The position numbers and the translations under genes were made by a program. 33,651 nucleotides of DNA from Acidobacteriota bacterium (GTDB taxonomy: Bacteria > Acidobacteriota > Aminicenantia > UBA2199): assembly GCA_025456205.1 (NCBI GenBank), contig JALOLA010000040.1, forward strand, positions 1 through 33,651, given 5' to 3'. Shown here one piece after another: positions 17,994 to 31,584 of this stretch. The notes beneath the pieces are model-generated. The model ran no database searches and was not told where the DNA came from. It worked only from the letters and a program-made list of their open reading frames with translations. Position 1 is the first letter of the stretch, and the number at the start of each line of letters is the position of its first letter.

Positions 17994-18211
17994 TTGGTCA
18001 GTACTCGGTGTAAGGCGGACGGTTGACGGTGAACGGTTTACGGCAAGAATCAGGAAGGAACTATGGGGATAAGTGATGAGTGATGCGTGATGAGCAAGAG
18101 CAATGGTTCGAGATTTTTTAAAAGATGCTTGTTCTTTCTCAGCGCTCAGCGGTTTTTTACAAAGCTGCAGGCATCTTCTGATGGATTCACCGGGTTTTAA
18201 AAAAATGCCCT
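17994..18211. repeat. gap with three heptameric repeat patches (ACGGTNN, GTGATGN, CTCAGCG)
   Basis: The 302-bp gap before the next gene is non-coding. It holds ACGGT/C spaced exactly every 7 nt at 18019, 18026, 18033 and 18040; GTGATG every 7 nt at 18073, 18080 and 18087; and CTCAGCG twice in tandem at 18138-18151. The last two patches face each other imperfectly (GAGCAAGAG versus CTTGTTCTTTCTC). The remainder to 18295 is the promoter and leader of the next gene. Confidence 0.7.
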
Positions 18212-18240
18212 TTGAGATTTCCTGCGAAATTCTTTATTCT
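18212..18240 (+). promoter_or_regulatory. promoter of the secreted unknown protein gene
   Basis: TTGAGA (18212-18217) and TATTCT (18235-18240) are separated by 17 bp. The expected leader is about 50 nt and ends in a strong AGGAGG ribosome site. Confidence 0.55.
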
Positions 18241-18295
18241 GGAGTCTAGGCAACGTCACGTGAATTGACGGATTGCGTTCCTGAGGAGGAAATAA

Positions 18296-18877
18296 ATGAA
18301 GCCTTTTGTCGCGGTCGTTGCGCTACTTGTGCTGGCGGCTACGGCGGCCGCCCAAGGGGGCGGTCAAAGTCACCCGGCCGACTGCCCGAAGGCGAACATC
18401 ATCACGATAATGATGTCCGCCATGCAGGCGTTCAGGGACGCCTTGCCTCTGGACCGCTCATCCCTGAAGGCATGCGGCGCCCAACTGTCCAAGGACGGCA
18501 AGGAGCTCCGCGTCTGCCTGGCCAACGGCGATTTCGCCATCGCCGACATGGCCAACAGCTTCGTGCTGCCGCTGAAGCACAAGGGGCAATTCATCCTGCA
18601 GGTCAATTTTTCCAATGGCGCCGGCATCGTGCCCGGCAAATATGATCCCGCCGCTGGCTACGGCAAGCCTTTCTGGGTGACCGGCGAGGTAAAAGTACCG
18701 CTGGGAGAGAAAGGCACGATTGTCATGCTGGGAGCGCGGGAGGGAACGGCCGAGATCATCGCCATGTCCGGCTCCACGGTCTGCGGCCGGTTCCATCTGA
18801 AAACCGTTGCCGGGCATCCGCAGCCTTCCGAAGTCGCCGGCGAGTTCAACGTGCCTATGGAACGCTCGCGCTGGTAA
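18296..18877 (+). CDS. secreted protein of unknown function
   Basis: A 193-residue protein. A strong AGGAGG lies just upstream of ATG 18296. Residues 1-19 form a clear signal peptide with likely cleavage at AAA-QGG. The mature protein has four cysteines (C30, C60, C74 and one near residue 163), enough for two disulfides in an oxidising compartment. Alternating hydrophobic/polar stretches (FILQVNFSN, TIVMLGAREG, GRFHLKTV) suggest mostly beta structure. I recognise no family motif. It is a single-gene unit flanked by heptameric repeats on both sides. Confidence 0.7.
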   Translation: MKPFVAVVALLVLAATAAAQGGGQSHPADCPKANIITIMMSAMQAFRDALPLDRSSLKACGAQLSKDGKELRVCLANGDFAIADMANSFVLPLKHKGQFILQVNFSNGAGIVPGKYDPAAGYGKPFWVTGEVKVPLGEKGTIVMLGAREGTAEIIAMSGSTVCGRFHLKTVAGHPQPSEVAGEFNVPMERSRW

Positions 18878-18911
18878 CGAGAGGCCGGCGTCCTAGCCTT
18901 CACGCTCTGTT

Positions 18912-18978
18912 CGTGACGCCTCATGAAGGACCAATAGCGGTCTCTTTTTCTTCCGCGTCACGCGTTGCGCGTCGCGAA
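18912..18978. repeat. ACGCGT-type heptameric repeat, one full and one degenerate arm
   Basis: CGCGTCA, CGCGTTG and CGCGTCG follow one another at 18954-18974. The facing left arm is reduced to CGTGACGC at 18912-18919, an exact reverse complement of 18955-18962. It lies between the converging ends of the secreted protein and LiaF-like genes. Confidence 0.65.
18929..18950 (+). terminator. weak terminator-like hairpin after the secreted protein gene
   Basis: GACC (18929-18932) pairs with GGTC (18939-18942) and is followed by a T-rich run (18943-18950). The stem is only 4 bp, so termination would be inefficient. It lies inside a wider inverted pair CGTGACGC (18912-18919) / GCGTCACG (18955-18962). 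Confidence 0.3.
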
Positions 18979-18988
18979 GTCCCTTCTT

Positions 18989-19693
18989 CTAGTTCTTGAT
19001 CTCCACTTCCCCAAGCAGTGCCGAGGCCTTGATGATCAGCTTGCCGCCGGTGGCGTCGGGGTTCTGCCGGGTGCGGTCGTCGACCGAGCCCAGCATGGCC
19101 GTGGGCTGGATCTCGAGTCGCCATTCGCGCGGCACGCGGATCTCCACGCCGCCCAGTACCGAGGAGACAGAGAGCAGCCAGTCCCCGGGGGCCAGCTTGG
19201 CCTCGAGCAGGTCGATCTCGGTGCCGCCCAGGACGTTGGCGATGTCGCCGCCCTTGAACTCGCGGCTGTTGATGCGGCGGTCGGTGCCGGCCAGGATGTT
19301 GCTGACGCGCACGCTGTCCTCGCCGCTGGCGGGGGCGGGGCGGGCGCTGCCGGGCAGCGGCACGGGGCTTCTCTTGAACACGATGGAGATGCCCAGCAGG
19401 ATGAGCACCGCAGGCCACCAGCGCCAGATGTCGCCCCAGCGGACAACGTCGAGCTCGGCCAGCAGGAAGACGAGGCCGAGCAGGATGAGGAACAGCCCGG
19501 AGAAGTCGAAGATGTTGCGGTTGTTCCAGAGATGGACCACCCCGAGCGCGATCAGGATCAGCGGCCACCAGTCGCCCAGGTTGAAGTCGAATGAGAATAT
19601 ATCCATGTTGTCCAGCAGCGCCAGGGTGCCGGCGACGATCAGCACCAGTCCCAAAAGTATCGCGCCGCTTGAAAGTTGTTTTTTCTCGCTCAT
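18989..19693 (-). CDS. LiaF-like four-helix membrane protein with C-terminal LiaF/toast_rack-type domain
   Basis: A 234-residue protein. The start at 19693 is supported by an AGGAGG site 6 nt upstream. Four hydrophobic helices lie at about residues 9-28, 42-57, 64-80 and 92-107. Aromatic turns 'GDWWPLILIALG' and 'WRWWPAVLILLG' are typical of the LiaI/LiaF membrane module. The cytoplasmic part (about 130-234) has repeated 'LGGTEIDL', 'LGGVEIRVP' and 'LGEVEI' strands, as in the beta-helix-like LiaF C-terminal domain. LiaF proteins modulate envelope-stress two-component systems in Firmicutes; related stand-alone proteins elsewhere are poorly understood. No LiaRS-like pair is nearby. Confidence 0.8.
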   Translation of the reverse strand: MSEKKQLSSGAILLGLVLIVAGTLALLDNMDIFSFDFNLGDWWPLILIALGVVHLWNNRNIFDFSGLFLILLGLVFLLAELDVVRWGDIWRWWPAVLILLGISIVFKRSPVPLPGSARPAPASGEDSVRVSNILAGTDRRINSREFKGGDIANVLGGTEIDLLEAKLAPGDWLLSVSSVLGGVEIRVPREWRLEIQPTAMLGSVDDRTRQNPDATGGKLIIKASALLGEVEIKN

Positions 19694-19717
19694 GATTGCC
19701 TCCTGTGGATCGAGACC

Positions 19718-19747
19718 AGTATAAAAAACATCGCAGGGAGTTGTCAA
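19718..19747 (-). promoter_or_regulatory. promoter of the LiaF-like gene
   Basis: On the minus strand, a perfect -35 TTGACA (19742-19747), 18 bp, then -10 TATACT (19718-19723). Expected start near 19711, about 18 nt before the ATG, with the ribosome site inside the leader. Confidence 0.65.
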
Positions 19748-19756
19748 ATGGAGATC

Positions 19757-19858
19757 GGCGTAAGGCGTAGGGCATGAGGCGCAGGGCAAGAGAAAAGTCA
19801 TTGTTGAGTTCGCTTGAGGCTTTTTTCTTGCCTTACACCATACGCCTTGTGCCCTCTT
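19757..19858. repeat. GGCGNAA-type heptameric inverted repeat pair
   Basis: Left arm 19757-19791 consists of five 7-nt units (GGCGTAA, GGCGTAG, GGCATGA, GGCGCAG, GGCAAGA). Right arm 19826-19857 is the facing version (TCTTGCC, TTACACC, ATACGCC, TTGTGCC), with about 35 nt between. It fills the gap between the nhaC stop and the LiaF-like promoter. Confidence 0.8.
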
Positions 19859-21280
19859 CTAACTGCCGACCTGCGTCTCGTCCTCGCGCGTGCGCCTGGC
19901 CATGGTGAAGCCGGTGCCGCCGTACAGCGCCAGCAGCAGCACCGAGAAATAATTCATGAAGGCGAAGGGCAGGTAGCTGGTCACCGGCACGCGCAGGATG
20001 CCCGAGATGTAGACGCCGGCCATGCTCCAGGGGACCAGCGGCACCATGATCGCCCCGCACTCCTCGACGATGCGCGACAGGTTCTTGGCCGCCAGGTCCA
20101 TTTTGCGGAAGGCCGGGGCGAGCAGCTCGCCCGGGATGAGCATCGAAAGGTAGGAACTGCCGGTGACCAGGGCGGTGACCAGGGTCGTGGCCATGGCCGT
20201 CAGCGACAGGCTCCAGGCGCGGCGGGCCAGGCGCGTCACCCGCTCCAGCACGACGGCGAGCATGCCGGTGCGCTGCATGATGCCGCCGAAGCTGAAGGCG
20301 GCCAGGGCGATGAGCAGCGTCTCCATCATGCTCATGATGCCGCCGCGCGAAATGAGGCGGTCGATGTCGGCCAGGCCGGTGCCTGACTTGTAGCCGCCGC
20401 TGAGGAAGCCGGCCAGGGAGACGAGCGTCTGGCGCTGCAGCCAGGCGGCCAGGGCGCAGGCGGTCGCCACCGACAGCATCATGCCGGGGATGACCGGCTT
20501 CTTCGCCAGGGCGAACCAGAAGACGATCAGCAGGGGCAGCAGCAGTACCGCGTGGAAGGTGAAATGGGCGCGCAGCCCGGACGTGATCAGGCCGATCTGC
20601 GGGGCGCTGGCGCCGGCGCGGCCGAACTTCAGGCCCATGAAGAAATACACGGCCAGCCCCGCCAGCCACGCCGGCACGGCCGACCACAGCATGTGGCGCA
20701 GGTGGTCGAAGAGGTTGGTGCCGGTCGCCACCGGCGCCAGGTTGGGGATGTCGGAGAAGGGCGACAGCTTGTCGCCGAGGTAGGCGCCGGCGACGATGGC
20801 CCCGGCCGCAGGCCCCAGCGGCACCTGCAGGGCCTGGGCGATGCCGATGAAGGCCACGCCGACGGTGCCCACCGTGCCCCAGGAGGTGCCGGTGGCCAGC
20901 GAGGTCACGCTGCAGGCCAGGCAGGCGGTGACCAGGAAAAAGCGCGGCGACACGAGCTTCAATCCGTAATAGAGGAGCATGGGGATGGTGCCGCTGGCCA
21001 TCCAGGCGGCGATGAGCATGCCGACGCAGAGCATGATCAGGATCGCCGGCAGCGCCTTGCGCACGCTCTCGACGATGCCCTGCTGCATCTCGTCCCACGA
21101 GTAGCCCAGGCGCCAGCCGACCAGGCCGGCGCAGACGGCGGCGCAGATGAGCAGCACCTGGGCCTGCAGGTGGAACATGCCGTAGCCCACGCCCAGCAGC
21201 AGCGCCATTACCGCCAGGGGCAGGCAGGCCAGCAGCAGGCCGGGTTGCCGGTGAGTTGTCGATGCGCTCGTTTCAGCCAT
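19859..21280 (-). CDS. nhaC: NhaC-family Na+/H+ (or organic acid) antiporter
   Basis: A 473-residue polytopic membrane protein with about 11-12 hydrophobic segments. GTSWGTVGTVG (about residues 132-142) and AGAYLGDKLSPFSD (about 163-176) are the hallmark ion-binding loops of the NhaC superfamily; the second inverted half has VTGSSYLSMLIPGEL. An AAGGAG site is 8 nt before ATG 21280. NhaC proteins exchange cytoplasmic Na+ for protons; close relatives (MleN) exchange malate/lactate with cation coupling. The stop lies directly against the heptameric repeat. Confidence 0.88.
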   Translation of the reverse strand: MAETSASTTHRQPGLLLACLPLAVMALLLGVGYGMFHLQAQVLLICAAVCAGLVGWRLGYSWDEMQQGIVESVRKALPAILIMLCVGMLIAAWMASGTIPMLLYYGLKLVSPRFFLVTACLACSVTSLATGTSWGTVGTVGVAFIGIAQALQVPLGPAAGAIVAGAYLGDKLSPFSDIPNLAPVATGTNLFDHLRHMLWSAVPAWLAGLAVYFFMGLKFGRAGASAPQIGLITSGLRAHFTFHAVLLLPLLIVFWFALAKKPVIPGMMLSVATACALAAWLQRQTLVSLAGFLSGGYKSGTGLADIDRLISRGGIMSMMETLLIALAAFSFGGIMQRTGMLAVVLERVTRLARRAWSLSLTAMATTLVTALVTGSSYLSMLIPGELLAPAFRKMDLAAKNLSRIVEECGAIMVPLVPWSMAGVYISGILRVPVTSYLPFAFMNYFSVLLLALYGGTGFTMARRTREDETQVGS

Positions 21281-21308
21281 TGAAAGATCTCCTTCTTAAA
21301 ACTTGCTT

Positions 21309-21336
21309 ATTATATATGTCCGCCTCATTGATGCAA
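21309..21336 (-). promoter_or_regulatory. promoter of nhaC
   Basis: On the minus strand, TTGCAT (21331-21336), 16 bp, TATAAT (21309-21314); the leader is about 20-25 nt with the ribosome site. Confidence 0.55.
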
Positions 21337-21348
21337 TACGTCTCCTCA

Positions 21349-21449
21349 AACTCACCCCCGAACCCCCTCTCTTGCGAAGAGAGGGGGAGCCTCTCAATAT
21401 TTCTTTTGACCCCTTCTCTTTGGGAAGAGAAGGGGGTGGGGGATGAGTT
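21349..21449. repeat. C/G-rich inverted repeat with two internal hairpins between divergent promoters
   Basis: Outer arms AACTCACCCCC (21349-21359) and GGGGGATGAGTT (21438-21449) face each other with one extra base. Inside are two strong hairpins: CCCCCTCTC...GAGAGGGGG (about 21363-21387) and CCCCTTCTC...GAGAAGGGG (about 21410-21436). The left arm reads in 7-nt steps (CTCACCC, CCGAACC, CCCTCTC). It lies exactly between the nhaC and rmuC promoters. Confidence 0.8.
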
Positions 21450-21476
21450 GACCGATTGTCCTTGGATGTTCTTGAA

Positions 21477-21505
21477 TTGCTATTTTCCCCTTCCTCTGTT
21501 ATGGT
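21477..21505 (+). promoter_or_regulatory. possible promoter of rmuC
   Basis: TTGCTA (21477-21482), 17 bp, then extended -10 TGT-TATGGT (TATGGT 21500-21505). The -10 box matches consensus at four of six positions. Confidence 0.4.
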
Positions 21506-21535
21506 GATTTTATAGGAGTATCAAAGGAACCCGCA

Positions 21536-22621
21536 ATGGAAACCGTTCTTTTTATAGTGCTGCTGGCCGTCGCCGTGGTGCTGCTGCTGGCGGTGCTGGC
21601 GCTGCAGCTGCGGCCGCGCGACGCCTCCCTCAACCAGCAGATGCTGGACCTGAAGAACCAGGTGCAGGAGCTGAAGACCGAGCAGCTGCAGGCGCAGAAC
21701 AAGGCGCTGATGCAGCAGAGCGGGCAGCTCAACGAGATCATGCGCACGGTCAACGAGACCCTGAGCAAGGGCCAGGGCAGCATCTCCAGCCAGCTGCGCG
21801 TGGTGGGCGAGATCCAGCAGAAGCTGGGGCTGCTCGAGGAATCGACCAACCAGATGAAGGCCATCGGCAAGGACATCTCCTCCCTGCAGGACATCCTGCG
21901 CGCGCCCAAGCTGCGCGGCAACCTGGGCGAATACCTGCTGGAGGACCTGCTGCGCCAGGTGCTGCCGGCCGGCAATTTCACCCTGCAGTACGCCTTTCCC
22001 GACGGCGCCAAGGTCGACGCCGTCATCACCCTGGGCGAGCGCCTGATCCCGGTCGACGCCAAGTTCCCACTGGAAAGCTTCGTGCGTCTCTTCGATGCCG
22101 GCGACGAGGAAGGCCGGAAGAAGCACAGGAAGGAATTCGTCAAGAGCTTCAAGCTGCGCGTCGACGAGATCGCCGCCAAGTACATCCGCCCCGAATGCGG
22201 CACCTACGACTTCGCCCTGGTCTACATCCCGGCCGAGAACGTCTTCTACGAGGCCGTGATCAGCGACGGCCTGGACGGCCGCAACTACGGCATCTTCAAC
22301 TACGCCGTGGAGAAGCACGTCATCCCCGTCTCACCCAACAGCTTCTACGCCTACCTGATGGCCATCGCCTTCGGCCTCAAGGGCCTGAAGATCGAGCAGC
22401 AGACCCGGCAGATCCTCAAGGACCTGGTCAAGGTGCAGGAGAGCTTCGCCCAGTTCTACGGCGACTTCTGCCTGCTGGGCAAGCACCTGGGCTACGCCGC
22501 CGGCAAGTACGACGAGACGGCCAAGAAGGCCGAGAAGTTCCAGGACCGCCTGGCCGACTTCACCGGCGCCCGCGGCGAGCTGCACGTGCCGGAAGACAAG
22601 GTCCCGGGACTCGATGAGTGA
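21536..22621 (+). CDS. rmuC: RmuC-family DNA recombination protein
   Basis: A 361-residue protein: N-terminal membrane anchor (residues 4-24), Gln/Leu-rich coiled coil (about 32-110), then the RmuC nuclease-like domain. The domain begins at LQDILRAPKLRGNLGEYLLEDLL (about 117-139) and contains the PD-(D/E)XK-like strand 'KVDAVITL...LIPVDAKFPLE' and later 'FALVYIPAENVFYEA'. RmuC limits inversions at short inverted repeats in E. coli. That is suggestive given the many inverted repeats here, but the link is only an inference. A single-gene unit with an AAGGA ribosome site. Confidence 0.92.
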   Translation: METVLFIVLLAVAVVLLLAVLALQLRPRDASLNQQMLDLKNQVQELKTEQLQAQNKALMQQSGQLNEIMRTVNETLSKGQGSISSQLRVVGEIQQKLGLLEESTNQMKAIGKDISSLQDILRAPKLRGNLGEYLLEDLLRQVLPAGNFTLQYAFPDGAKVDAVITLGERLIPVDAKFPLESFVRLFDAGDEEGRKKHRKEFVKSFKLRVDEIAAKYIRPECGTYDFALVYIPAENVFYEAVISDGLDGRNYGIFNYAVEKHVIPVSPNSFYAYLMAIAFGLKGLKIEQQTRQILKDLVKVQESFAQFYGDFCLLGKHLGYAAGKYDETAKKAEKFQDRLADFTGARGELHVPEDKVPGLDE

Positions 22622-22636
22622 TCCGCGACGATCCTT

Positions 22637-22826
22637 CGTAACGCGTGACGCGTAACGCGGGAAGAAATGGACTTAAATTCCAAGCACCAAGCACCAAATT
22701 CCAAATAAATTCAAAGCTCCAAATTCCAATGTCAAAAACGAAGGCCCTTTCATTGCCTTATTTTTTGTTTGGGTCATTGGATTTTGGTGCTTGTTTGTGA
22801 TTTGGTACTTATGATTTGGAATTTTA
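22637..22826. repeat. ACGCGT heptads followed by a large AAATTCC-type inverted repeat
   Basis: ACGCGTG, ACGCGTA and ACGCGGG lie in tandem at 22641-22661 with no facing partner. Then comes an imperfect palindrome of about 150 bp: left arm 22674-22736 in 7-nt steps (AAATTCC, AAGCACC, AAGCACC, AAATTCC), right arm about 22746-22826 whose reverse complement reads AAATTCC, AAATCAT, AAGTACC, AAATCAC. The A/T-rich composition contrasts sharply with the flanking genes. No coding potential. Confidence 0.8.
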
Positions 22827-22842
22827 GTTCTTACTCTCTGAT

Positions 22843-22870
22843 TTGCAAAAAATATTCCCGTTCATATAAT
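22843..22870 (+). promoter_or_regulatory. promoter of the P-loop/OPA transporter operon
   Basis: TTGCAA (22843-22848), 16 bp, perfect TATAAT (22865-22870). The leader is about 36 nt with GGGAGG shortly before ATG 22914. Confidence 0.6.
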
Positions 22871-22913
22871 ACAGGTTCACGGCAGAATAAACGCTTCCCG
22901 GGAGGAACGCGCC

Positions 22914-23669
22914 ATGGAAAAGAAGACATTCGACGTCATCGTCCTGATCGGCCGGCCGGCCGCCGGCAAGTCCGAGGTCATCGACTATTTGAAGAAGGTG
23001 CCGCTGGCGGATCGCGTCAAGCGCTTCCACATCGGCGAGTTCCAGGAGATCGACGATTTCCCCATCCTCTGGGAGCGCTTCGAGGACGACGACCTGATGG
23101 AGGAGATGGGGCAGCCGCGCCTGATCACCGACAAGGAGTTCACCTACGAGGGCAAGACCATGCCCGGCTACGTCTTCAAGCACAAGTGGTTCTGGAACTT
23201 CCTGATCAAGAAACTGAACCTGCAGTACTCCAAGCTGCTGCGCGACGACCCCGCCTTCCACGAGAAGAAGACGCTGTTCATCGAGTTCGCGCGCGGCAGC
23301 GAGCACGGCGGCTTCCGCGAGGCCTTTTCCCACCTCGCGCCGCAGGTGCTGGACCGCGCCGCCTGCATGTACATCAAGGTCGACTGGCCGGAATCGCTGC
23401 GCAAGAACCGCCGGCGCTACAACCCCGACCGGCCCGACTCCATCCTGCAGCACGCCCTGGAGGACAAGAAGATCGAGATGCTCTACAAGGAGTCGGATTG
23501 GGACGAGTTCGCCTCTGACCCGAAGTTCCTGCCGGCGGGCGGGCGCCGGGTCCCCTACGCCGTCTTCGACAACATGCCCGAGAAGACCGACCAGCCCGAG
23601 GTGCTGGGCGCCCACCTGGAGGAAGTGCTCGCTGGGCTCTGGAAAACCTGGCGTGAGGTGAAAAAATGA
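22914..23669 (+). CDS. P-loop NTPase/kinase-like protein, function unknown
   Basis: A 251-residue cytoplasmic protein. Residues 7-20 form a beta strand plus Walker A (VIVLIGRPAAGKS, K19), in the GxxxxGKS form of small-molecule or nucleotide kinases. A second acidic strand (TLFIEFARGSEHGG, about residue 120-133) could be Walker B. An Arg-rich 'SLRKNRRRYNPDRP' (about 161-174) could be a lid. No nucleotide- or sugar-kinase subfamily signature is recognised. Its stop overlaps the start of an OPA-type transporter (ATGA), suggesting a shared substrate or pathway, perhaps acting on what the transporter imports. Confidence 0.7.
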   Translation: MEKKTFDVIVLIGRPAAGKSEVIDYLKKVPLADRVKRFHIGEFQEIDDFPILWERFEDDDLMEEMGQPRLITDKEFTYEGKTMPGYVFKHKWFWNFLIKKLNLQYSKLLRDDPAFHEKKTLFIEFARGSEHGGFREAFSHLAPQVLDRAACMYIKVDWPESLRKNRRRYNPDRPDSILQHALEDKKIEMLYKESDWDEFASDPKFLPAGGRRVPYAVFDNMPEKTDQPEVLGAHLEEVLAGLWKTWREVKK

Positions 23670-25033: not shown

Positions 25034-25103
25034 GTGCCGGCTGGAGCCCGGTGAAATGACACGGCGCCGGGCGCTGTAGGATTCCGGGTCCTTTCGCGCC
25101 CGT

Positions 25104-25132
25104 TTGCCCCGGCGCGTTTGCCGTGCTAAAAT
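25104..25132 (+). promoter_or_regulatory. promoter of the TPR protein gene
   Basis: TTGCCC (25104-25109), 17 bp, extended -10 TGC-TAAAAT (TAAAAT 25127-25132). A short leader contains GAGGT before ATG 25150. Confidence 0.5.
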
Positions 25133-25149
25133 ACTGGCCAGAGGTCACC

Positions 25150-25941
25150 ATGCGCGCAATCTTCTTAACGGTCCTGCTGCTGGTTTTCCTGAGCGCCGGC
25201 GCCATGCCGGCTTCCGGCGCCGGGCCCGCGGCGGTCGGGGAGGAGACGGCCGTCGGCCGCACGCTCAAATACAAGGCTTGCGAAAAAGACCTGGCCCGGG
25301 CCGTAAAGCTGCTGAAGAAGCGCCAGGCGGCTGACGCCGAGGCCAGCCTGCGGCAATGCCTGAAGATCGTCCCCGAGCACTACGAGGCCCACTACCTGCT
25401 GGCGCAGGTGGCGGCGGAGCGCGGCGATTACGCGGCGGCCGTCGGTCATTTGCAGCAGGCCGAGGCCGAGATGGAACGAATGGCCGGCTTGTGCCGCGCC
25501 TGGCAGGCGGAGAGCGAGCGCGAGGAGACCGCCGAGCGCGAGCTGGTCAGCGGCGAGGCGCAGGACACGATGATCAAGTCGCCCTGCGCGGCCAACAGCA
25601 CCAAGATCGACACCGGCCGCCTGGACCGGGAACGGGGCATCACCTCCGGCTCGCGGCTGGCGCCACTCGATCCGCGGCGCTTCGAGGTCCCTGCCGCCTG
25701 GCATTTCGCCCACGGCAATTTCCTGTACAAGTCGCGGCGCTGGGCCGACGCCGCCGCGCGCTACCGCCTGGCGCTGGAGCGCGACCCGCGCCTGGGCGCG
25801 GCCTGGAACAACCTACTCGGCGCCCTGATGCTTGCCGGGCAGGTCGAAGCGGCGCGCAGCGAGCTGCAGCAGGCCCTGCAGGCCGGTGCCGACGTGAATC
25901 CGGAATTACGGCGGGCGGTCGAGGCGGGCGCGGTCCGCTAG
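25150..25941 (+). CDS. exported TPR-repeat protein
   Basis: A 263-residue protein. The start ATG 25150 has GAGGT 4 nt upstream; an in-frame ATG at 25123 lies before the -10 box and is rejected. Residues 1-23 are a signal peptide. Two TPR pairs are visible: about 45-105 (LKKRQAADAEASLRQCLKIVPEHYEAHYLLAQVAAERGDYAAAVGHLQQA-type spacing) and about 190-255. They are separated by a charged linker with two cysteines. TPRs bind partner proteins; the partner is unknown. Its TAG shares the palindromic CTAG (25938-25941) with the stop of the converging MBL gene. Confidence 0.8.
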   Translation: MRAIFLTVLLLVFLSAGAMPASGAGPAAVGEETAVGRTLKYKACEKDLARAVKLLKKRQAADAEASLRQCLKIVPEHYEAHYLLAQVAAERGDYAAAVGHLQQAEAEMERMAGLCRAWQAESEREETAERELVSGEAQDTMIKSPCAANSTKIDTGRLDRERGITSGSRLAPLDPRRFEVPAAWHFAHGNFLYKSRRWADAAARYRLALERDPRLGAAWNNLLGALMLAGQVEAARSELQQALQAGADVNPELRRAVEAGAVR

Positions 25942-26624
25942 TTCAGGAAGGGGTTCAGCAGCCCTTCTTCGCCGATGGTGGTCGGCCGCCCGTGGCCGGG
26001 CCAGACGACGGTGGCGGCGGGGAGCGCCAGCAGTTTTCGCCGGATCACCCGCGCCAGGGCTTTCAGCGCTTTTTCCTCGTTCTTTCCCTCCGGCACGCGG
26101 CCGACGCCGCCGGCCATCAGCGTGTCGCCGCTGAACAGTTGCCCGCCGATGAGGAAACAGGAGCTCCCCGGCGTATGGCCCGGGGTGGCCAGGACCTGCA
26201 CCGGGAATCCCCCCGCGTCCAGCGCCTGCCCGTCCTGGAACCACGTATCGACCGCGGCGGCGTTGCCGCTCTTTTCGTAGAGCGGCCGGTCGCCGGCCGG
26301 GGCGGCCAATCTGGCGGCGAAGCGCTCGCGCAGGGCGCGGTTGCCGCCGACGTGGTCGAAATGACCGTGGGTATTGAGAACCAGGCGCACCTGCACGCCC
26401 AGCTCGCCGGCAACGGCGGCAAAGCGCTCGTCGTCGGCCCCGGGGTCGATGAGCACGGCGCTGCGGCTGGGCCGGTGGCAGACCAGGTAGCTGTTCACCG
26501 GGAACGGCTCCGCGGCCGTTCCCGCGTTGACCACGAAGCGCTTCACCACCAGGTCATCGGCGGCATAGCTGAGCGTCGCCGCCGCCAGCAGCAGCGCCAG
26601 CAGCAGCCCGCGGGGCGATCTCAT
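25938..26624 (-). CDS. MBL-fold metallo-hydrolase (glyoxalase II-like), exported
   Basis: A 228-residue protein with a signal peptide (residues 5-21). The metal site is intact: THGHFDH (H86, H88, D90, H91), TPGHTPGS (about 150-157), FSGDTL and WPGHGRPTTIGEE near the C-terminus. This is the glyoxalase II/persulfide dioxygenase/lactonase-like branch. Substrate is unknown. The export signal is unusual for glyoxalase II. The start overlaps the deaminase stop by 4 nt. Confidence 0.85.
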   Translation of the reverse strand: MRSPRGLLLALLLAAATLSYAADDLVVKRFVVNAGTAAEPFPVNSYLVCHRPSRSAVLIDPGADDERFAAVAGELGVQVRLVLNTHGHFDHVGGNRALRERFAARLAAPAGDRPLYEKSGNAAAVDTWFQDGQALDAGGFPVQVLATPGHTPGSSCFLIGGQLFSGDTLMAGGVGRVPEGKNEEKALKALARVIRRKLLALPAATVVWPGHGRPTTIGEEGLLNPFLN

Positions 26625-27226
26625 GGCTTGCCTCCCCGGGCAACACCCCGGCGGCCGTTATAGACCGTCCCCTGGCCCTGGCGGTACAGCTCGAGCACGG
26701 CGGTCGCCTCGGCGCGCAGGTACTCGCCGACGACGGTGATGCCGCGCTTGTTCAGCTCCAGCGGCCAGTCCCTGGGCAGCGGTCCTTCGTCGAATCCCAG
26801 CGTGCCGGTGACGTCGGCGGCGATGGCGCCGTAGGTCAGGCGGGTGACCCCGGACCACAGGGTGGCGCCCAGGCACATCAGGCAGGGCTGGGAGCTGGTC
26901 ACCAGCTCGCCGCCGGCGCCGGCGGAGTCCAGGTCGAAGGTTTTCAGCTTCTGCTGGGCGAACGAGAAGGCCATGATTTCGGCGTGGGCCGAAGAAAGGT
27001 TCAGCGGTTCGACGCGATTGACGCCGGCGCCCAGCAGCCGGCCCGACTCGCGCTCAAAGACGGCGGCGGCGAACGGGCCGCCGGTCCTGTGCTCGACGTT
27101 GAGCCGCGACAGGCCGATGACCCAGCGCATGCGGGCCTCTGGATCGGGGATGAAAATTTCGTTCCCGGTCAGCATTTCATCCAGCCAGGGGGGCAGGGTC
27201 AGAGTGACAATGGATGGGTTTTTCAT
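26621..27226 (-). CDS. cytidine/guanine deaminase-family nucleoside deaminase
   Basis: A 201-residue protein. The zinc deaminase motifs are complete: HAE at H81-E83 and PCLMC at C115/C118. The middle DLDSAGAGGELVTSSQPC region resembles guanine deaminase and tRNA adenosine deaminase relatives. It carries extra N-terminal (about 30) and C-terminal residues compared with the about 155-residue family core. Guanine deamination to xanthine would fit the xanthine-dehydrogenase-type gene 5 kb away, but the substrate is not proven. The start codon lies 7 nt after a TATAAT box with no ribosome site. Confidence 0.82.
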   Translation of the reverse strand: MKNPSIVTLTLPPWLDEMLTGNEIFIPDPEARMRWVIGLSRLNVEHRTGGPFAAAVFERESGRLLGAGVNRVEPLNLSSAHAEIMAFSFAQQKLKTFDLDSAGAGGELVTSSQPCLMCLGATLWSGVTRLTYGAIAADVTGTLGFDEGPLPRDWPLELNKRGITVVGEYLRAEATAVLELYRQGQGTVYNGRRGVARGGKP

Positions 27227-27233
27227 TGGATCA

Positions 27234-27242
27234 ATTATAGCA
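27234..27242 (-). promoter_or_regulatory. extended -10 promoter of the deaminase/MBL operon; predicts leaderless mRNA
   Basis: Minus-strand TGC-TATAAT (TATAAT at 27234-27239), then 7 nt, then ATG 27226. This is the same nine bases and spacing as at serS. The -35 position falls in the edge of the ACGCGT heptad repeat and has no match to TTGACA. Confidence 0.6.
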
Positions 27243-27252
27243 TACCGAGCTT

Positions 27253-27375
27253 ACGTGACGCGTAACGCGTGACGCGTGACGCGAAAGAATAAAATAGTGC
27301 CTTTCTCTTTTGAATCACGAATTCCGAATTACGTAGTTCTGAAAGCTCATTCACGGATCACGCAGACCTGAAAGC
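27253..27375. repeat. ACGCGT heptads plus GAATNNC heptads in a divergent gap
   Basis: ACGCGTA, ACGCGTG, ACGCGTG, ACGCGAA in tandem at 27258-27285. Then GAATCAC, GAATTCC, GAATTAC at 27312-27332. CTGAAAGC occurs as a direct repeat at 27339-27346 and 27368-27375. No facing ACGCGT arm is seen. The gap separates the divergently read deaminase and beta-grasp genes. Confidence 0.7.
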
Positions 27376-27423
27376 CTTGCCGGCTTGCCTCTGACCTCTC
27401 CCGGCAGGAGATGCCGGCCATTC

Positions 27424-27452
27424 TTGACAATAGGTGCCGACTTACTTATTAT
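27424..27452 (+). promoter_or_regulatory. strong promoter of the beta-grasp/5'-nucleotidase genes
   Basis: Perfect TTGACA (27424-27429), 17 bp, TATTAT (27447-27452). The leader is about 20 nt and contains GGAG before ATG 27479. Confidence 0.7.
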
Positions 27453-27478
27453 TGGTTTCTTTAAACGGAGTTGTCATC

Positions 27479-27697
27479 ATGAACATAAAAGTGAACGGCA
27501 GAGAGGTGGAGATCTTTTCCGGCGCGCGGGTGGCAGATGTCCTGCGCAAGTACTCCCGGATCTCCTGGAAGCAGGTGCAGAACGGCAGCAAGACGGTCTG
27601 CGACGGCCTCGGCCATGAGATCGCCCACGACGGCGAGCTGAACGGCGGCGAGGCGCTTTTTGTCCGCATGGCCGGGAAAAGGAGGGCGGGCAAATGA
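27479..27697 (+). CDS. small ThiS/TGS-like beta-grasp protein
   Basis: A 72-residue protein with GGAG 8 nt before ATG 27479. The pattern MNIKVNGREVEIFSGARVADVLRKY, then an acidic turn and 'DGELNGGEALFVR', resembles the ThiS/MoaD/TGS beta-grasp fold. It lacks the C-terminal Gly-Gly needed for sulfur carriage and ends in a basic tail (KRRAGK). A carrier role is therefore unlikely. A 4-nt overlap with the 5'-nucleotidase suggests co-expression; function unknown. Confidence 0.6.
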   Translation: MNIKVNGREVEIFSGARVADVLRKYSRISWKQVQNGSKTVCDGLGHEIAHDGELNGGEALFVRMAGKRRAGK

Positions 27698-29181
27698 AGC
27701 GGACCAAGCGTAGCCTGATCGTATCCTTCCTGCCGCTGCTGCTGCTGGCCGGCCTGGCCTGCTCCTCGTGCGCCTCGCTGCCGCCGGCGCCCGCTGACGC
27801 CCGCATCGTCATCTTCCATTTCAACGACGTCCACGGCAAGATCGACAACTTCGCCAAGGTGGCGGCCATCGTGGAGCGCGAGCGCCGCCAGGGCGGCGAC
27901 GTCTACCTGTTCTGCGCCGGCGACAACTTCACCGGCAACCCGATCATCGACCAGTACGAGCCGCCGGGCGAGCCGATGCTGGAGCTGCTCAATCGCCTGG
28001 GGGTCGACCTGCTCAGTCCCGGCAACCACGAGTTCGATATCGGCCTGGACAACCTCAGGCGCTTCGCGGCCAGGACGAGCTTTCCCTTCGTCTCGGCCAA
28101 CATCCAAGCCGGCGCCGACGGCTTCCCCCAGCTCAAGCCCTACGTCGAGCTGAAGACGAAAAGCGGGGTCCGCATCGCCGTCTTCGGCCTGATCCAGATC
28201 GAGGCCGGCAACGGCCTGCCCTCGACCCATCCCGACAAGGTCAAGGGCCTGCGCTTCAGCGAACCGCTGCAGCAGGCCCTGGAAATGAAGGCGCTGCGCT
28301 CCGGCAACCATGTCCTGCTGGGCCTGACCCACCTGGGCTTCGACGTGGACCAGAAGCTGGCCGAGCGGATGCCCGAGCTCGACGCCATTATCGGCGGCCA
28401 CTCCCATACCCGCGTCGACCCGGCCGAGATCATCAACGGCGTGCTGGTGGCCCAGGCCGGCAGCGACAACCGCTACCTGGGCCGGGTGGAACTGCGCGTG
28501 CGCAACGGCAGCGTGGCCGAGAAAAAGGGCGAGCTCATCGAGCTGAAGGCGCAGCGCGAGGAGGACCCCGAGGTCAAGGCCATGATCGCCAGGTTCAACC
28601 AGAACCCGGCCTTCGCCCGCGTCATCGCCGAGGCCCCGTTCGCCATCGAGGGCAAGGACGCGCTGGGCTCCCTGATGACCGACGCCATCCGCTGGGCCCA
28701 CGGCCTGGACGTCGCCTTCCAGAACCAGGGCGGCATCCGCCTGAACCGTCTGAGCGAAAAGATCACCCTCAAGGACATCTTCACCCTCGACCCCTTCGGC
28801 AACCAGGTGATCGAGATCGTCATGAGCGCCGAGGAGATCCGCTCGCTGGTCCGCGACTCCTTCGCCAAGGGCGACGAGATCGACCTGCAGGTCTCCGGCC
28901 TCTCCTACCTGGTGCGCACCGACGAGCAGCGGCGCATCCAGGAGATCCTGCTGCGCCGCCCCGACGGCAGCCCCCTGCCCGAGGAGGGGAAGTACAAGGT
29001 CGGCGTCTCCAGCTACGTCGCCAGCTCCTACAGCTTCGCCCACAAGGACCCGGGCCGGGCCCTGGCCTCGACCACCGCCGACGCCCTGATCCGCTTCCTG
29101 GAAAGCCGCCCCGACCTGTCGCTGTATCGCGGCATCCAGCGAGCTTTCCAGGACCCGCCGGGACGCCCCGGGCGCTATTGA
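27694..29181 (+). CDS. 5'-nucleotidase/metallophosphoesterase (UshA family), exported
   Basis: A 495-residue protein. The N-terminal signal (residues 7-26) ends in a Cys-rich stretch (LACSSC), possibly a lipoprotein but without a standard lipobox. The two-metal phosphoesterase motifs are present: FNDVHG (D45, H47), GDNFTGN, GNHEFD, and GGHSHTRV. The C-terminal substrate domain has 'FQNQGGIRLN' and 'LDPFGNQV', typical of 5'-nucleotidases. It would hydrolyse extracellular or periplasmic nucleotides to nucleosides, in keeping with the adjacent thymidine kinase and deaminase. Confidence 0.9.
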   Translation: MKRTKRSLIVSFLPLLLLAGLACSSCASLPPAPADARIVIFHFNDVHGKIDNFAKVAAIVERERRQGGDVYLFCAGDNFTGNPIIDQYEPPGEPMLELLNRLGVDLLSPGNHEFDIGLDNLRRFAARTSFPFVSANIQAGADGFPQLKPYVELKTKSGVRIAVFGLIQIEAGNGLPSTHPDKVKGLRFSEPLQQALEMKALRSGNHVLLGLTHLGFDVDQKLAERMPELDAIIGGHSHTRVDPAEIINGVLVAQAGSDNRYLGRVELRVRNGSVAEKKGELIELKAQREEDPEVKAMIARFNQNPAFARVIAEAPFAIEGKDALGSLMTDAIRWAHGLDVAFQNQGGIRLNRLSEKITLKDIFTLDPFGNQVIEIVMSAEEIRSLVRDSFAKGDEIDLQVSGLSYLVRTDEQRRIQEILLRRPDGSPLPEEGKYKVGVSSYVASSYSFAHKDPGRALASTTADALIRFLESRPDLSLYRGIQRAFQDPPGRPGRY

Positions 29182-29201
29182 CCGCCCAAGGAGATTGATC
29201 C

Positions 29202-29705
29202 ATGGCCCAGCTCTATTTCCGCTATTCGACCATGAACGCCGGCAAGTCCACCGAGATCCTCAAGATTGCCCACAACTACGAGGAACAGAACAAGCACGCC
29301 CTGCTGTTCACCCCGGCCATCGACGACCGCTTCGGCCGCGGCAAGATCACCTCGCGCATGGGTTTTCAGCGCGACGCCCAGATCATCAGCAGCGACGTCG
29401 ACATGATGCGCCTGGCCCGCGAGGCGAAGCCCGACTGCGTGCTGGTCGACGAAGGGCAGTTCCTCACCCGCGAGCAGGTGGTCACGCTGACGCGCATCGT
29501 CGACCAGCTGAATATCCCGGTCATCGTCTACGGCCTGAAGAACGACTACCGCAACCACCTCTTCTCCGGCAGCGAGGCGCTGCTGCTCTTCGCCGACAAG
29601 GTCGAGGAGGTCAAGGCCGTCTGCTGGTACTGCACCAAGAAGGCGACCATGCTGCTCAAGTACAAGGGAAATGTTACGGGCAGAGGCTGGAGATCAAGTA
29701 ACTGA
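29202..29705 (+). CDS. tdk: thymidine kinase, C-terminus truncated
   Basis: A 167-residue type II thymidine kinase. The P-loop STMNAGKST is at residues 9-17, the catalytic base E84 in LVDEGQFL, and IPVIVYGLKNDYRNHLFSGSEALL (about 105-128) is the hallmark helix/strand. The first zinc pair C141/C144 (CWYC) is present, but the second pair (C...H near residues 180-190) is missing because the frame ends after NVTGRGWRSSN. The neighbouring frame reads GKCYGQRLEIK and would be joined by one extra G in the GGG run at 29666-29668. Family proteins usually reach about 190 residues. The repeat element begins 8 bp after the stop. AAGGAG lies upstream of the ATG. It phosphorylates thymidine to dTMP; whether this copy is active is uncertain. 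Confidence 0.88.
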   Translation: MAQLYFRYSTMNAGKSTEILKIAHNYEEQNKHALLFTPAIDDRFGRGKITSRMGFQRDAQIISSDVDMMRLAREAKPDCVLVDEGQFLTREQVVTLTRIVDQLNIPVIVYGLKNDYRNHLFSGSEALLLFADKVEEVKAVCWYCTKKATMLLKYKGNVTGRGWRSSN

Positions 29706-29712
29706 CACGGCT

Positions 29713-29874
29713 CCGTGACGCGTAACGCGTGACGCGTGACACGCGGCAGCCAGTTGGCAACTTTTTTTATTTCGGGGTAAAAAAGTATGGTTGAGTAATG
29801 AATGAGAAGAGTAAGTAAGTTCAAGACAGACATCTTGCTTTTTCGCGTTACGCGTTACGCGTCACGCGTCACGT
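29713..29874. repeat. ACGCGT-type heptameric inverted repeat pair
   Basis: Left arm 29713-29746 has ACGCGTA, ACGCGTG, ACGCGTG. Right arm 29844-29871 has CGCGTTA, CGCGTTA, CGCGTCA, CGCGTCA. The arms are near-perfect reverse complements with about 97 nt between. The loop contains AGTT-GGC-AACT followed by seven T (about 29753-29769), which could act as a weak terminator for tdk. It occupies most of the tdk/EamA gap. Confidence 0.85.
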
Positions 29875-29895
29875 AGGCTTAGTGACAAGCGACTC

Positions 29896-30765
29896 ATGAA
29901 TGAATTGATCTCCCACCGTCAACCTCGCGAACTGCGCCTGGGCATCCTGGCCATGGTCGCCACCGCCTTCCTGTGGAGCATCGCCGGGCTGTTCATCAAG
30001 GTTATCGACTGGAACCCGTTCGCCATCGCCGGCGCCCGCAGCCTTATCTCCTCGCTGGTCGTGCTGGCCTGGCTGCGCCGGCCGCGCTTCCACTGGTCGC
30101 CGGCGCAGGTCGGCGCCGCCCTCACCCAGGCAATGACCATGCTGCTCTTCGTCTCGGCCAACAAGACCACCACCGCGGCCAACGCCATCCTGCTGCAGTA
30201 CGTGGGGCCGGTGTTCACCGCCATCATCGGCGCCTGGCTGCTCAAGGAGCGGGCGCGCTGGGAGCACTGGCTCGCCTTTGCCTTCGTCGGCGCCGGCATG
30301 GTCCTTCTCTTCATGGACAAGCTGGGCGGCGGCCGCCTGCTGGGCAACGTCCTGGCGCTGCTGTCGGGGCTGGTCTTCAGCTTCTACTACATCTTCATGC
30401 GCATGCAGAAGGACGGGTCGCCGCTGGAGTCGATCCTGCTGGCGCACTGGCTCACCGCCGCCATCGGCCTGGGGGTGGCGCTCTTCCTGCCGTGCCCCGT
30501 CCTCACCTGGAAGGCGGCCGGCGCCATCGCCATGCTGGGGATCTTCCAGGTCGGGGCTGCGGCCATCCTCTTCTCCTACGCCATCAAGCGCATCACGGCC
30601 ATCTCCGCCAACCTGGTCGCCGTCATCGAGCCGGTCTTCAACCCGTTGTGGGTGTTCCTGGCCCTGCGCGAGCGGCCGGGCGTCCATGCCATCGTCGGCG
30701 GCGCCATCATCATCGCCGCCGTGACCGGAGCGTCCATCATCAGTGCCCGGAGGGCGGCTACGTGA
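29896..30765 (+). CDS. EamA/DMT-superfamily transporter
   Basis: A 289-residue protein with ten hydrophobic helices in two EamA halves (about residues 16-140 and 150-285). It has the usual 'NKTTTAANAILLQYVGPVFTAIIGAWLLKER' signature region near the end of the first half and 'ANLVAVIEPVFNPLWVFLALRER' in the second. This family exports amino acids or other metabolites. No ribosome site or good -10 box is visible before ATG 29896. The stop codon TGA (30763-30765) is formed by the first bases of the following heptameric repeat. Confidence 0.88.
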   Translation: MNELISHRQPRELRLGILAMVATAFLWSIAGLFIKVIDWNPFAIAGARSLISSLVVLAWLRRPRFHWSPAQVGAALTQAMTMLLFVSANKTTTAANAILLQYVGPVFTAIIGAWLLKERARWEHWLAFAFVGAGMVLLFMDKLGGGRLLGNVLALLSGLVFSFYYIFMRMQKDGSPLESILLAHWLTAAIGLGVALFLPCPVLTWKAAGAIAMLGIFQVGAAAILFSYAIKRITAISANLVAVIEPVFNPLWVFLALRERPGVHAIVGGAIIIAAVTGASIISARRAAT

Positions 30766-31013
30766 CGCGTGACGCGTGACGCGTAACGCGGAAGAATTAG
30801 GCATAAATTTCCAATCACAAACATATCCCAAGTTCCAAGTTCCAACGACCAAATCAAACGCAATTTAAATTTTCTTCAGGTAGGGGTTTGATTAATCCAA
30901 CCCTACACCGTCGTTTTGATTCTTTTTCTTCGTTTATGTTATTGGTGTTTGTCAGGTGCAGGGAATTTCAGCCTGCTTCTTCTCATGTCACGCGTTACGC
31001 GTCACGCGTCACA
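30760..31013. repeat. nested heptameric inverted repeat (ACGCGT outer arms, TTCCAAN inner arms, central hairpin)
   Basis: Outer left arm 30765-30792: ACGCGTG, ACGCGTG, ACGCGTA, ACGCGGA. Outer right arm 30991-31011: CGCGTTA, CGCGTCA, CGCGTCA. Inner arms: TTCCAAG, TTCCAAC and CACAAAC motifs at about 30809-30870, facing GATTC...TATTGGTGTTTGTC at about 30916-30953. Centre: GTAGGG (30880-30885) and CCCTAC (30901-30906) form a hairpin. The whole gap between the EamA and YjbQ genes is this structure. Confidence 0.82.
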
Positions 31014-31042
31014 TATTTCTATGCCGGACGTTCATATTCGGT

Positions 31043-31048
31043 TATAAT
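31043..31048 (+). promoter_or_regulatory. -10 box of yjbQ; predicts leaderless mRNA
   Basis: Perfect TATAAT lies 6 nt before ATG 31055 with no ribosome site. No convincing -35 box; the repeat arm ends 29 bp upstream of it. Confidence 0.5.
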
Positions 31049-31054
31049 CCCTCT

Positions 31055-31474
31055 ATGAAAAGCTATCGCAAGGAACTGTGGTTCCAGACCCCCGGCCGGC
31101 GCGCCTTCATCAACATCACCCCCGACGTCGAGCGGGCGCTGGCCGAGAGCGGCGTCCGCGAGGGCCTGGCGCTGGTCAACGCCATGCACATCACGGCCTC
31201 GGTGTTCATCAATGACGACGAGTCGGGGCTGCACCAGGACTATGAAAAGTGGCTGGAAAAGCTGGCCCCGCACGAGCCGGTCTCGGCCTACCGCCACAAC
31301 CTCAGCGGCGAGGACAACGGCGATGCCCACCTGAAGCGCCAGGTCATGGGCCGCGAGGTGGTGGTGGCGGTCAGCGGCGGCCGCCTCGACTTCGGCCCCT
31401 GGGAGCGGATCTTCTACGGCGAGTTCGACGGCAGGAGGAAGAAGCGCGTGCTGGTCAAGATCATAGGAGAATAA
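31055..31474 (+). CDS. yjbQ: YjbQ/UPF0047-family protein
   Basis: A 139-residue protein, the usual family length. The start ATG 31055 ([12 protein letters not shown]) matches the family N-terminus. It carries the characteristic [31 protein letters not shown] core and the C-terminal [31 protein letters not shown] segment. Members form trimers with a metal-like site from His residues and can substitute weakly for thiamine phosphate synthase in E. coli; the physiological role is unclear. Confidence 0.93.
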
Positions 31475-31479
31475 CCCTC

Positions 31480-31584
31480 GGCGCAGGGTGCAAGGCGCAA
31501 GGTGCAAGGCAAGAAAATTTGCATGCCATTTTTATGCTCCTTATCTTTCTTCCCTACGCCCTTCGCCCTTCACCTTACGCCGAG
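31480..31584. repeat. GGCGNAA-type heptameric inverted repeat pair, second copy
   Basis: Left arm 31480-31514: GGCGCAG, GGTGCAA, GGCGCAA, GGTGCAA, GGCAAGA. Right arm about 31550-31584: CGCCCTT, CGCCCTT, CACCTTA, CGCCGAG. Same unit type and geometry as the element at 19757-19858. It starts 5 bp after the yjbQ stop and ends 18 bp before the next -35 box. Confidence 0.82.

What the first reader, a model, noticed from the sequence alone, without database searches (positions are those of the whole stretch)
18010..31584. Many unrelated unit sequences, one rule: intergenic repeats with an exact 7-nt period
From 18 kb on, most longer gaps contain degenerate tandem repeats whose unit is always 7 nt although the unit sequence differs: ACGGTNN, GTGATGN, CTCAGCG, ACGCGTR, GGCGNAA, AAATTCC/AAGCACC, GAATNNC, CTCACCC-like. 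Most are arranged as facing arms. They lie outside promoters, in co-directional and divergent gaps. The form recalls the short tandemly repeated repetitive (STRR) heptamers of heterocystous cyanobacteria, but here several unit types coexist in 14 kb and are paired as inverted arms. A shared generating process (slippage or template-switch, or mobile hairpin elements) is an inference.
Basis: partly seen in the sequence, partly recalled or inferred. Interest (0 to 1): 0.75.

Follow-up and report, generated by a model that had tools for sequence, protein, structure and literature searches.

The report
Paired heptamer arms between bacterial genes
The gaps between genes in this uncultured bacterium are littered with small hairpin-like elements whose two facing ends are each built from four copies of a 7-letter word; at least ten different words obey the same layout, and the same gap in sister species holds a different word, which looks like fast-moving mobile DNA and bears on the unexplained excess of 7-base repeats across bacteria.

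Summary
Gaps of the window carry 11 period-7 arrays (shuffles 0.06); in unselected stretches of the same genome the density is 6.9 per 10 kb of gap against 0.28 in coding DNA and 0.4-0.8 for neighbouring periods. The arrays are not free-running microsatellites. They are arms of about four units plus 2 nt (30-31 nt modal), with fixed and degenerate positions (CGTRACG, AGTRACN, TTCGTRA, GTTCGAN, AGACGYY and others), set as facing pairs (31 of 37 same-family neighbours, p=1e-13) with a purine-rich inner flank. A hexamer family (AGTGDY) follows the same layout, so 7 is the rule but not exclusive. In eight orthologous gaps across up to nine species both arms change family together, or the gap is empty or holds genes. 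Two arms of one element are no more alike than arms of different elements, which argues against hairpin copying or slippage. Best reading: non-autonomous, palindromic, mobile elements that invade the stretch between a stop codon and the next promoter and nest in each other; the mobilising enzyme was not found. Paired four-unit heptamers are known in Xanthomonas and Geobacter; the many-family grammar and block turnover are new.

The parts
18011..18046 (+). CGGTNNA array, forward arm, gap 1
   Evidence: TRF 18018-18043 period 7
18068..18094 (+). GTGATGM array, forward arm, gap 1
   Evidence: TRF period 7, 3.9 copies
18138..18151 (-). CTCAGCG x2, weak facing arm (two copies only)
   Evidence: read directly; marked
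18954..18976 (-). CGTYACG array, reverse arm of the CGTRACG family
   Evidence: TRF period 7
19757..19786 (+). GGCGYAR arm, forward, gap 2
   Evidence: hairpin with its partner z -3.0
19831..19854 (-). GGCGYAR arm, reverse, gap 2
   Evidence: read directly; pairs with 19757-19786
21350..21450 (.). CTCACCC-like palindrome pair, not a heptamer array
   Evidence: no period-7 array found
22637..22659 (+). CGTRACG arm, forward, gap 4
   Evidence: TRF; genome pattern hit
22671..22826 (.). CCAAATT/CCAAGCA long hairpin element, dispersed in sister genomes
   Evidence: many dispersed hits of this stretch in G034 and G083; RNA fold -73.8 kcal/mol, z -7.6
27254..27283 (+). CGTRACG arm, 30-mer with unit order G-A-G-G, gap 5
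   Evidence: TRF
27313..27333 (-).
   Evidence: read directly
29714..29740 (+). CGTRACG arm, forward, gap 6
   Evidence: TRF
29844..29873 (-). CGTRACG arm, reverse, gap 6
   Evidence: TRF
30761..30790 (+). CGTRACG arm, forward, gap 7
   Evidence: TRF; outer stem of a 266-nt nested hairpin, z -8.5
30816..30845 (+). CCAAGTT array nested inside the gap 7 element
   Evidence: TRF 30828-30845
30987..31012 (-). CGTRACG arm, reverse, gap 7
   Evidence: TRF
31478..31510 (+). GGCGYAR arm, forward, gap 8
   Evidence: TRF 31480-31510, period 14/7
31552..31581 (-). GGCGYAR arm, reverse, gap 8
   Evidence: TRF 31552-31571; read directly

Best explanation
The arrays are the ends of a population of small, non-autonomous, palindromic mobile elements, typically about 100-300 bp. 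Each end is a roughly 30-nt arm of four degenerate heptamers plus a purine-rich AAGAAAA-like inner flank; the other end is an arm of the same or another family in the opposite direction. Elements enter the stretch between a gene's stop codon and the next promoter, where they do little harm, and also enter each other, giving nested hairpins. Old ones are lost or overwritten, so the same gap in a sister species has another family. The arm sequence itself is what is kept, probably because a protein reads the fixed positions of several heptamers in a row. Shown: period, arm size, polarity, position, nesting, block turnover, dispersed copies, slower change of arms than of spacers in one species pair. 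Inferred: mobility by an enzyme, recognition by a protein, and that selection against harm places them.
For: Block turnover: in eight orthologous gaps flanking genes are 72-97% identical, yet the arms switch family together, e.g. gap 6: CGTRACG in G000, AGACGYY in G083, AAAAGGC (+GTTCGAN) in G134/G135, GTGACRA in G145, CGGTNNA in G141, none in G146; empty versus roughly 500-bp filled site at L013:15629-15755 vs G083 C1:43191-43812. Dispersed copies as composite blocks: CGGTNNA+CCAAATT and GTGATGM+hexamer composites at 85-97% identity in different G083 gaps; an AGACGYY arm plus spacer joined to different outer flanks. Arm order conserved: G-A-G-G is the commonest of the CGTRACG 30-mers in G000 and G083. 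Polarity 63 facing vs 11 back-to-back. Long nested hairpins z -7.6 and -8.5. Arms within co-directional gaps lie a median 23 nt from the upstream stop and 94 nt from the downstream start. G134/G135: arms 199/202 identical, spacers 256/286, p=4e-5.
Against: No mobilising enzyme found: G000 has no DDE_Tnp_1 or rve hit and one Y1 gene, and Y1 genes of the genus are not bounded by heptamer arms. For most families the spacers of different elements are unrelated, unlike ordinary MITEs. Target-site duplications were not demonstrable. Half of adjacent facing pairs join different families (32 of 63). Arms of the same family in orthologous and in unrelated gaps are about equally alike, so retention and re-insertion cannot be told apart there.
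Confidence: 0.5

Rival explanations
1. Host-maintained binding sites: each family is an array of four sites for a DNA- or RNA-binding protein (regulator, nucleoid protein or insulator), placed as facing pairs so that bound proteins bridge the two arms; the host uses them to separate neighbouring transcription units.
For: Position-specific constraint inside units (fixed positions mostly 98-100%); arms change more slowly than spacers in G134/G135; more frequent in convergent gaps (55%) than in co-directional (25%) or divergent ones (22%). The Geobacter metallireducens paper reads its paired heptamers as global regulator sites (PMC2700814).
Against: The family in a given gap is not conserved between sister species, and some species have none in that gap; present also in divergent gaps; at least ten families would each need a protein.
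Confidence: 0.2
2. Slippage: heptamer arrays arise in place by polymerase slippage favoured at 7 nt, as proposed for bacterial heptamers in general, and facing arms by template switching.
For: A period-7 excess with unrelated units is what a unit-length-biased mutation process predicts; a few arrays are long (AGACGYY up to 110 nt or more) and heptamer excess is widespread (PMC6344855, PMC4692102).
Against: Unit number is set near four; the same units recur in many separate gaps; variable positions are family-specific; facing arms are not copies of each other (p=0.99); hexamers with the same layout; whole blocks swapped between species.
Confidence: 0.1
3. Arms spread by homologous recombination or gene conversion between copies, without a dedicated enzyme; the population is a by-product of repair at palindromes.
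For: Local tandem duplications of elements (G083_C5:38147-38613); composite and mixed-family pairs; arms alike while spacers differ.
Against: Does not explain entry into gaps that had no copy, nor why both arms switch family together.
Confidence: 0.12
4. Three-frame translation stops: because 7 is not a multiple of 3, a stop-bearing heptamer repeated four times closes all reading frames for ribosomes entering from the flanking gene.
For: Read inward, 95 of 186 arms have stops in all three frames, 13 read outward, 4% in shuffles and 1.4% in random gap 30-mers; in three families the degenerate base is the R of T-R-A.
Against: GTTCGAN and CCAAATT arms have none, CGGTNNA and AAAAGGC almost none, AGACGYY has them in both directions; period 6 cannot do it. 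With about ten families the family-level test is weak, and the inward strand is purine-rich anyway.
Confidence: 0.06
5. REPINs mobilised by the RAYT (Y1) transposase.
For: Similar layout: two inverted arms around a spacer, extragenic, nested; Y1 genes in 15 of 16 genomes of the genus.
Against: The Y1 gene of G000 is flanked by GTAG-type palindromes, not heptamer arms; single arms are not palindromic REPs; G145 has heptamer pairs but no Y1 hit (MAG, 93% complete).
Confidence: 0.02

Closest known systems
GGGANTN heptamer repeats of Xanthomonas (Rehm et al. 2015, PMC4692102)
   Same: Heptamers with fixed and variable positions, most often four units, intergenic, 70-75 convergent pairs per genome.
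   Different: One G-rich family explained by G-quadruplexes; here at least ten families, most without G-tracts, so four units cannot be due to quadruplexes. Between the two Xanthomonas genomes 83% of repeats stay in the same gene context; in this more divergent genus the gaps are re-populated.
Paired 'global regulator binding sites' and Gmet_H4 elements of Geobacter metallireducens (PMC2700814)
   Same: Several classes of 3-5 tandem short repeats (mostly heptamers), mostly paired on opposite strands at variable distance.
   Different: Read there as regulator sites; no comparison of the same gaps in sister species was seen; unit sequences differ.
STRR heptamers of heterocystous cyanobacteria and TAACTGA repeats of Beggiatoaceae (PMC4679880)
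   Same: Intergenic heptamers, several kinds per genome, present in distant phyla.
   Different: Described as one-directional arrays of varying length; inverted pairs reported as rare (one indirect repeat in Maribeggiatoa; few pairs in Nostoc).
REPINs/BIMEs with RAYT (PMC3116915, PMC2817692)
   Same: Facing arms, extragenic, population-like, non-autonomous.
   Different: No palindromic REP in each arm, no RAYT link.
MITEs
   Same: Short, inverted ends, dispersed, no gene.
   Different: Ends inexact and mixed between families, interiors mostly unrelated, no matching transposase or target duplication shown.
Genome-wide heptamer excess (SPADE survey, PMC6344855)
   Same: Heptamers reported as the most abundant tandem repeats in prokaryotic intergenic regions, function unknown.
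   Different: That survey gives no architecture; here a layout and an evolutionary behaviour are shown.

Membership tests
Slippage microsatellite (SSR) | Open-ended unit number | tested here: not met
   Arm lengths cluster at 30-31 nt; 10 of 231 are 40 nt or more
Slippage microsatellite (SSR) | Excess of one period over neighbours in non-coding DNA | tested here: met
REPIN/RAYT | Tagged palindromic REP in each arm (GTAG/CGTC) | tested here: not met
   Arms are degenerate direct repeats; GTAG palindromes exist separately
REPIN/RAYT | RAYT gene flanked by the same repeats | tested here: not met
   13 Y1 loci: none bounded by heptamer arms; two have a facing pair some 800 nt away
MITE | Terminal inverted repeats | tested here: met
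   31 of 37 same-family neighbours face each other
MITE | Conserved interior among copies | tested here: inconclusive
   Met for CCAAATT/CGGTNNA and GTGATGM composites, not for most AGACGYY, GTGACRA, GTTCGAN elements
MITE | Target-site duplication | tested here: inconclusive
   Empty and filled sites are from species too divergent to define ends
MITE | Related autonomous element with transposase | tested here: not met
   No DDE_Tnp_1 or rve in G000, Y1 unrelated; other transposase families not searched
Intrinsic terminators | GC stem followed by T-run, enriched at the site | tested here: not met
   15 found vs 11.5 +/- 3.9 expected, none formed by heptamer arms; the T-run precedes the 3' arm instead
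Xanthomonas-type paired heptamers | About four units, degenerate positions, convergent pairs, intergenic | tested here: met
   paper features
Xanthomonas-type paired heptamers | Four G-tracts able to form a quadruplex | tested here: not met
   GTTCGAN, CGTRACG, TTCGTRA, CCAAATT units contain no GGG
Geobacter paired regulator sites | Binding by a regulator | not testable with these tools
   No binding data
Cyanobacterial STRR | Heptamer arrays, several unit types per genome | tested here: met
   homology to STRR units was not tested

The most novel reading that the evidence does not exclude
Four-unit heptamer arms in facing pairs are the recognition ends of a so far unnamed, pan-bacterial class of mobile hairpin elements, with many interchangeable end sequences, and this class accounts for much of the unexplained intergenic heptamer excess of prokaryotes.
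Probability: 0.25. Interest if true: 0.85.

Novelty: new variant of a known kind. Interest (0 to 1): 0.6.

Why it matters
Heptamers are reported as the commonest short tandem repeats between prokaryotic genes and have had no explanation (PMC6344855). A shared grammar (four units, fixed and free positions, facing pair, purine inner flank, block turnover) turns a statistical curiosity into a countable element with ends, which can be tested for mobility and for a binding protein. It also weakens two earlier explanations: slippage, and quadruplex formation as the reason for four units.

Tried and rejected
Hairpin copying: arms of one element not more alike than arms of others. RAYT/REPIN: Y1 loci carry other repeats. 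DDE transposases PF01609 and PF00665: none in G000. Terminators: no enrichment. Rfam: only a sub-threshold MIR841 match to the long hairpin at 22668-22830, a chance resemblance to a hairpin (33.7 bits vs gathering 200). Autonomous copies: same-family facing arms 0.45-6 kb apart gave no transposon-like core; the best case, G134 gap 5, encloses ordinary-looking genes. Exact CCAAATTCCAAATTCCAA and GTTCGAN patterns outside the genus: none or single hits, so those families look lineage-specific (the exact CCAAATT pattern is also absent from G000 itself, so that test is strict), whereas AGTGACV is shared with Bacteroidales (42), Thermoanaerobaculia (9), Nitrospira (4) and Nitrospiraceae (2) genomes with control 0. 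Many Streptomyces, Burkholderia and Cryobacterium hits are lone perfect arrays and are not counted as the same thing.
Full report
What the window is. The window is one whole contig of a 2.59-Mb, 124-contig, 87%-complete genome. Its nearest relatives in a 16-genome genus include G083, whose contig lengths (497,758; 412,349; 333,395) equal those of 'Candidatus Aminicenantes bacterium UBA6072', so this is an uncultured Aminicenantes-type bacterium.

Is the period real. Genes were called with a simple codon-bias caller. In window gaps lag 7 stands out (z 9.7) with echoes at 14 and 21, and coding DNA shows nothing at 7. Across 592 kb of the same genome lags 7, 14, 21 and 28 stand out in gaps only. 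Counting arrays, gaps have 126 at period 7 against 5-11 at periods 5, 8, 10, 11, 13; coding DNA has 16. Half of those stretches had been picked for a CGTGACG match, so I repeated the count in the unselected half: 17 arrays in 24.6 kb of gap (6.9/10 kb) against 0.28/10 kb in coding and 0.4-0.8 for neighbouring periods; shuffled gaps of that half plus the window give 0.9 where 28 are seen. G083 shows the same (20.8 vs 0.39 per 10 kb, again partly picked).

Anatomy. The arrays fall into at least ten families with fixed and free positions: CGTRACG (99-100% fixed except R and a slightly looser last base), AGTRACN, TTCGTRA, GTTCGAN (last base any), AGACGYY, GGCGYAR, CGGTNNA, AAAAGGC, CCAAATT, GTGATGM. 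Arms peak at 30-31 nt, four units plus two bases. Unit order is not random: G-A-G-G is the commonest CGTRACG order in G000 and G083. A hexamer family, AGTGDY, has arms of 26-27 nt, again four units plus two, so four units is the firmer rule and 7 the usual unit length. Neighbouring arms face each other (63) far more than they turn away (11); among same-family neighbours 31 of 37 face, with a median spacer of 81 nt. Inside each arm follows a purine-rich AAGAAAA-like flank. Elements nest, giving long concentric hairpins: 266 nt in gap 7 (z -8.5) and 211 nt in gap 4 (z -7.6). Simple single elements fold less convincingly (z -1.9 to -3.0, one not at all).

Position. 133 of 451 gaps (G000 plus sister stretches) hold arrays: 55% of convergent, 25% of co-directional and 22% of divergent gaps. 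In co-directional gaps the outer arm lies a median 23 nt after the stop codon and 94 nt before the next start; promoter-like sites lie between element and start codon, and in gap 4 that promoter stretch is conserved across species while the element changes.

Behaviour. In eight window gaps compared with up to nine sister species, flanking genes are conserved but the element is not. Both arms change family together: gap 6 holds CGTRACG (G000), AGACGYY (G083), AAAAGGC with GTTCGAN (G134, G135), GTGACRA (G145), CGGTNNA (G141) or nothing (G146). Another gap is empty in G000 and filled with about 500 bp of nested arms in G083. Dispersed copies of composite blocks are found at 85-97% identity. In the closest pair, G134/G135, arms are 199/202 identical and spacers 256/286 (p=4e-5), so arms change more slowly than what they enclose.

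What this excludes. If arms were made by hairpin copying or template switching, the two arms of an element should match each other best; they do not (0.864 vs 0.880 +/- 0.007 for shuffled partners). Slippage would give open-ended lengths and no family-specific free positions. Quadruplexes, proposed for the four-unit Xanthomonas repeats (PMC4692102), cannot apply to families without G-tracts. Terminators are not enriched. Y1/RAYT genes are not bounded by the arms.

Spread. The exact CGTRACG triple is in three genus members and in none of 116 other genomes drawn from the phylum. Single stretches from other genomes of the phylum rarely show a period-7 excess; G009, from another genus, does, with AAAAGGC arms facing each other. 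In named genomes of other phyla CGTRACG arrays also occur, and of 43 close array pairs there 13 face as the same unit, in Planctomycetota, Nitrospira-type, Chloroflexi, Acetothermia, Thermoanaerobaculia and Bacteroidetes records. AGTGACV, with the same free position, is multi-copy in a Bacteroidales genome (42) and present in Nitrospira and Thermoanaerobaculia. GTTCGAN and the exact CCAAATT triple are nearly confined to the genus. These are mostly metagenome bins, so misbinning cannot be excluded for single hits.

Best reading. Small palindromic mobile elements with interchangeable four-unit ends, tolerated between stop codon and promoter, nesting in one another, and turning over as blocks. 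The enzyme is missing from the account: G000 has no DDE_Tnp_1 or rve match and one Y1 gene, and only three transposase families were searched in an 87%-complete genome. A host-maintained site array is the main rival, because arms are constrained and enriched in convergent gaps; it does poorly on the family swaps. A curious extra is that inward-read arms often close all three frames (95 of 186 vs 13 outward), with T-R-A degeneracy in three families; families without stops make this an unlikely general function.

Known or new. Paired four-unit heptamers are known from Xanthomonas and Geobacter, and the general heptamer excess from surveys. New here are the number of families under one layout, the hexamer variant, the independence of the two arms, and the block replacement in orthologous gaps. 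I file it as a new variant of a known kind.

Noticed in passing
window 29202-29705 (tdk), 3' end: Sister species carry about 70 nt more at the 3' end of tdk (cysteine-containing end VCRKCYGQRLEIK) than this genome; here the frame ends ...KYKGNVTGRGWRSSN beside the gap 6 element. Deletion or assembly error.
   Followed up: partly
L026 1400-2040 (G000:C109): The only Y1 (RAYT-like) gene of the genome is flanked by GTAG-type palindromes GGGCGGGTTTAAAACCCGCCC, a separate repeat population; similar palindromes also sit inside a CGTRACG pair in G034 gap 1.
   Followed up: partly
L163 5298-8660 and the G134 counterpart of gap 4: Gap 4 holds a 3.4-kb gene cassette starting with an ATPase-like gene and no heptamer element in two sister species.
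   Followed up: no
L236, gap 5 of G134: 2.9 kb with a nucleotidyltransferase/antitoxin-like gene pair and a repeat protein lies between facing AAAAGGC arms, where G145 has the same arms with a short spacer.
   Followed up: partly
gap 1 of G083, G134, G135: A facing hairpin with an apparent 8-nt unit (gttcaaga gttcatga gttgaagg gttgaagc) nested inside GTTCGAN arms.
   Followed up: no
gap 5 of G083/G135, gap 7 of G145, gap 4 of G142: Purine-rich palindromes gggaagagagaggg... facing their complement, another recurrent element type.
   Followed up: no
arms of CGTRACG, AGTRACN and TTCGTRA families: The degenerate base is the R of T-R-A, so every variant keeps a stop codon (TAA or TGA) read inward.
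   Followed up: partly
window 21350-21450: Two CTCACCCCC...GAGAGGGGG palindromes in divergent gap 3; sister species have heptamer elements there instead.
   Followed up: no
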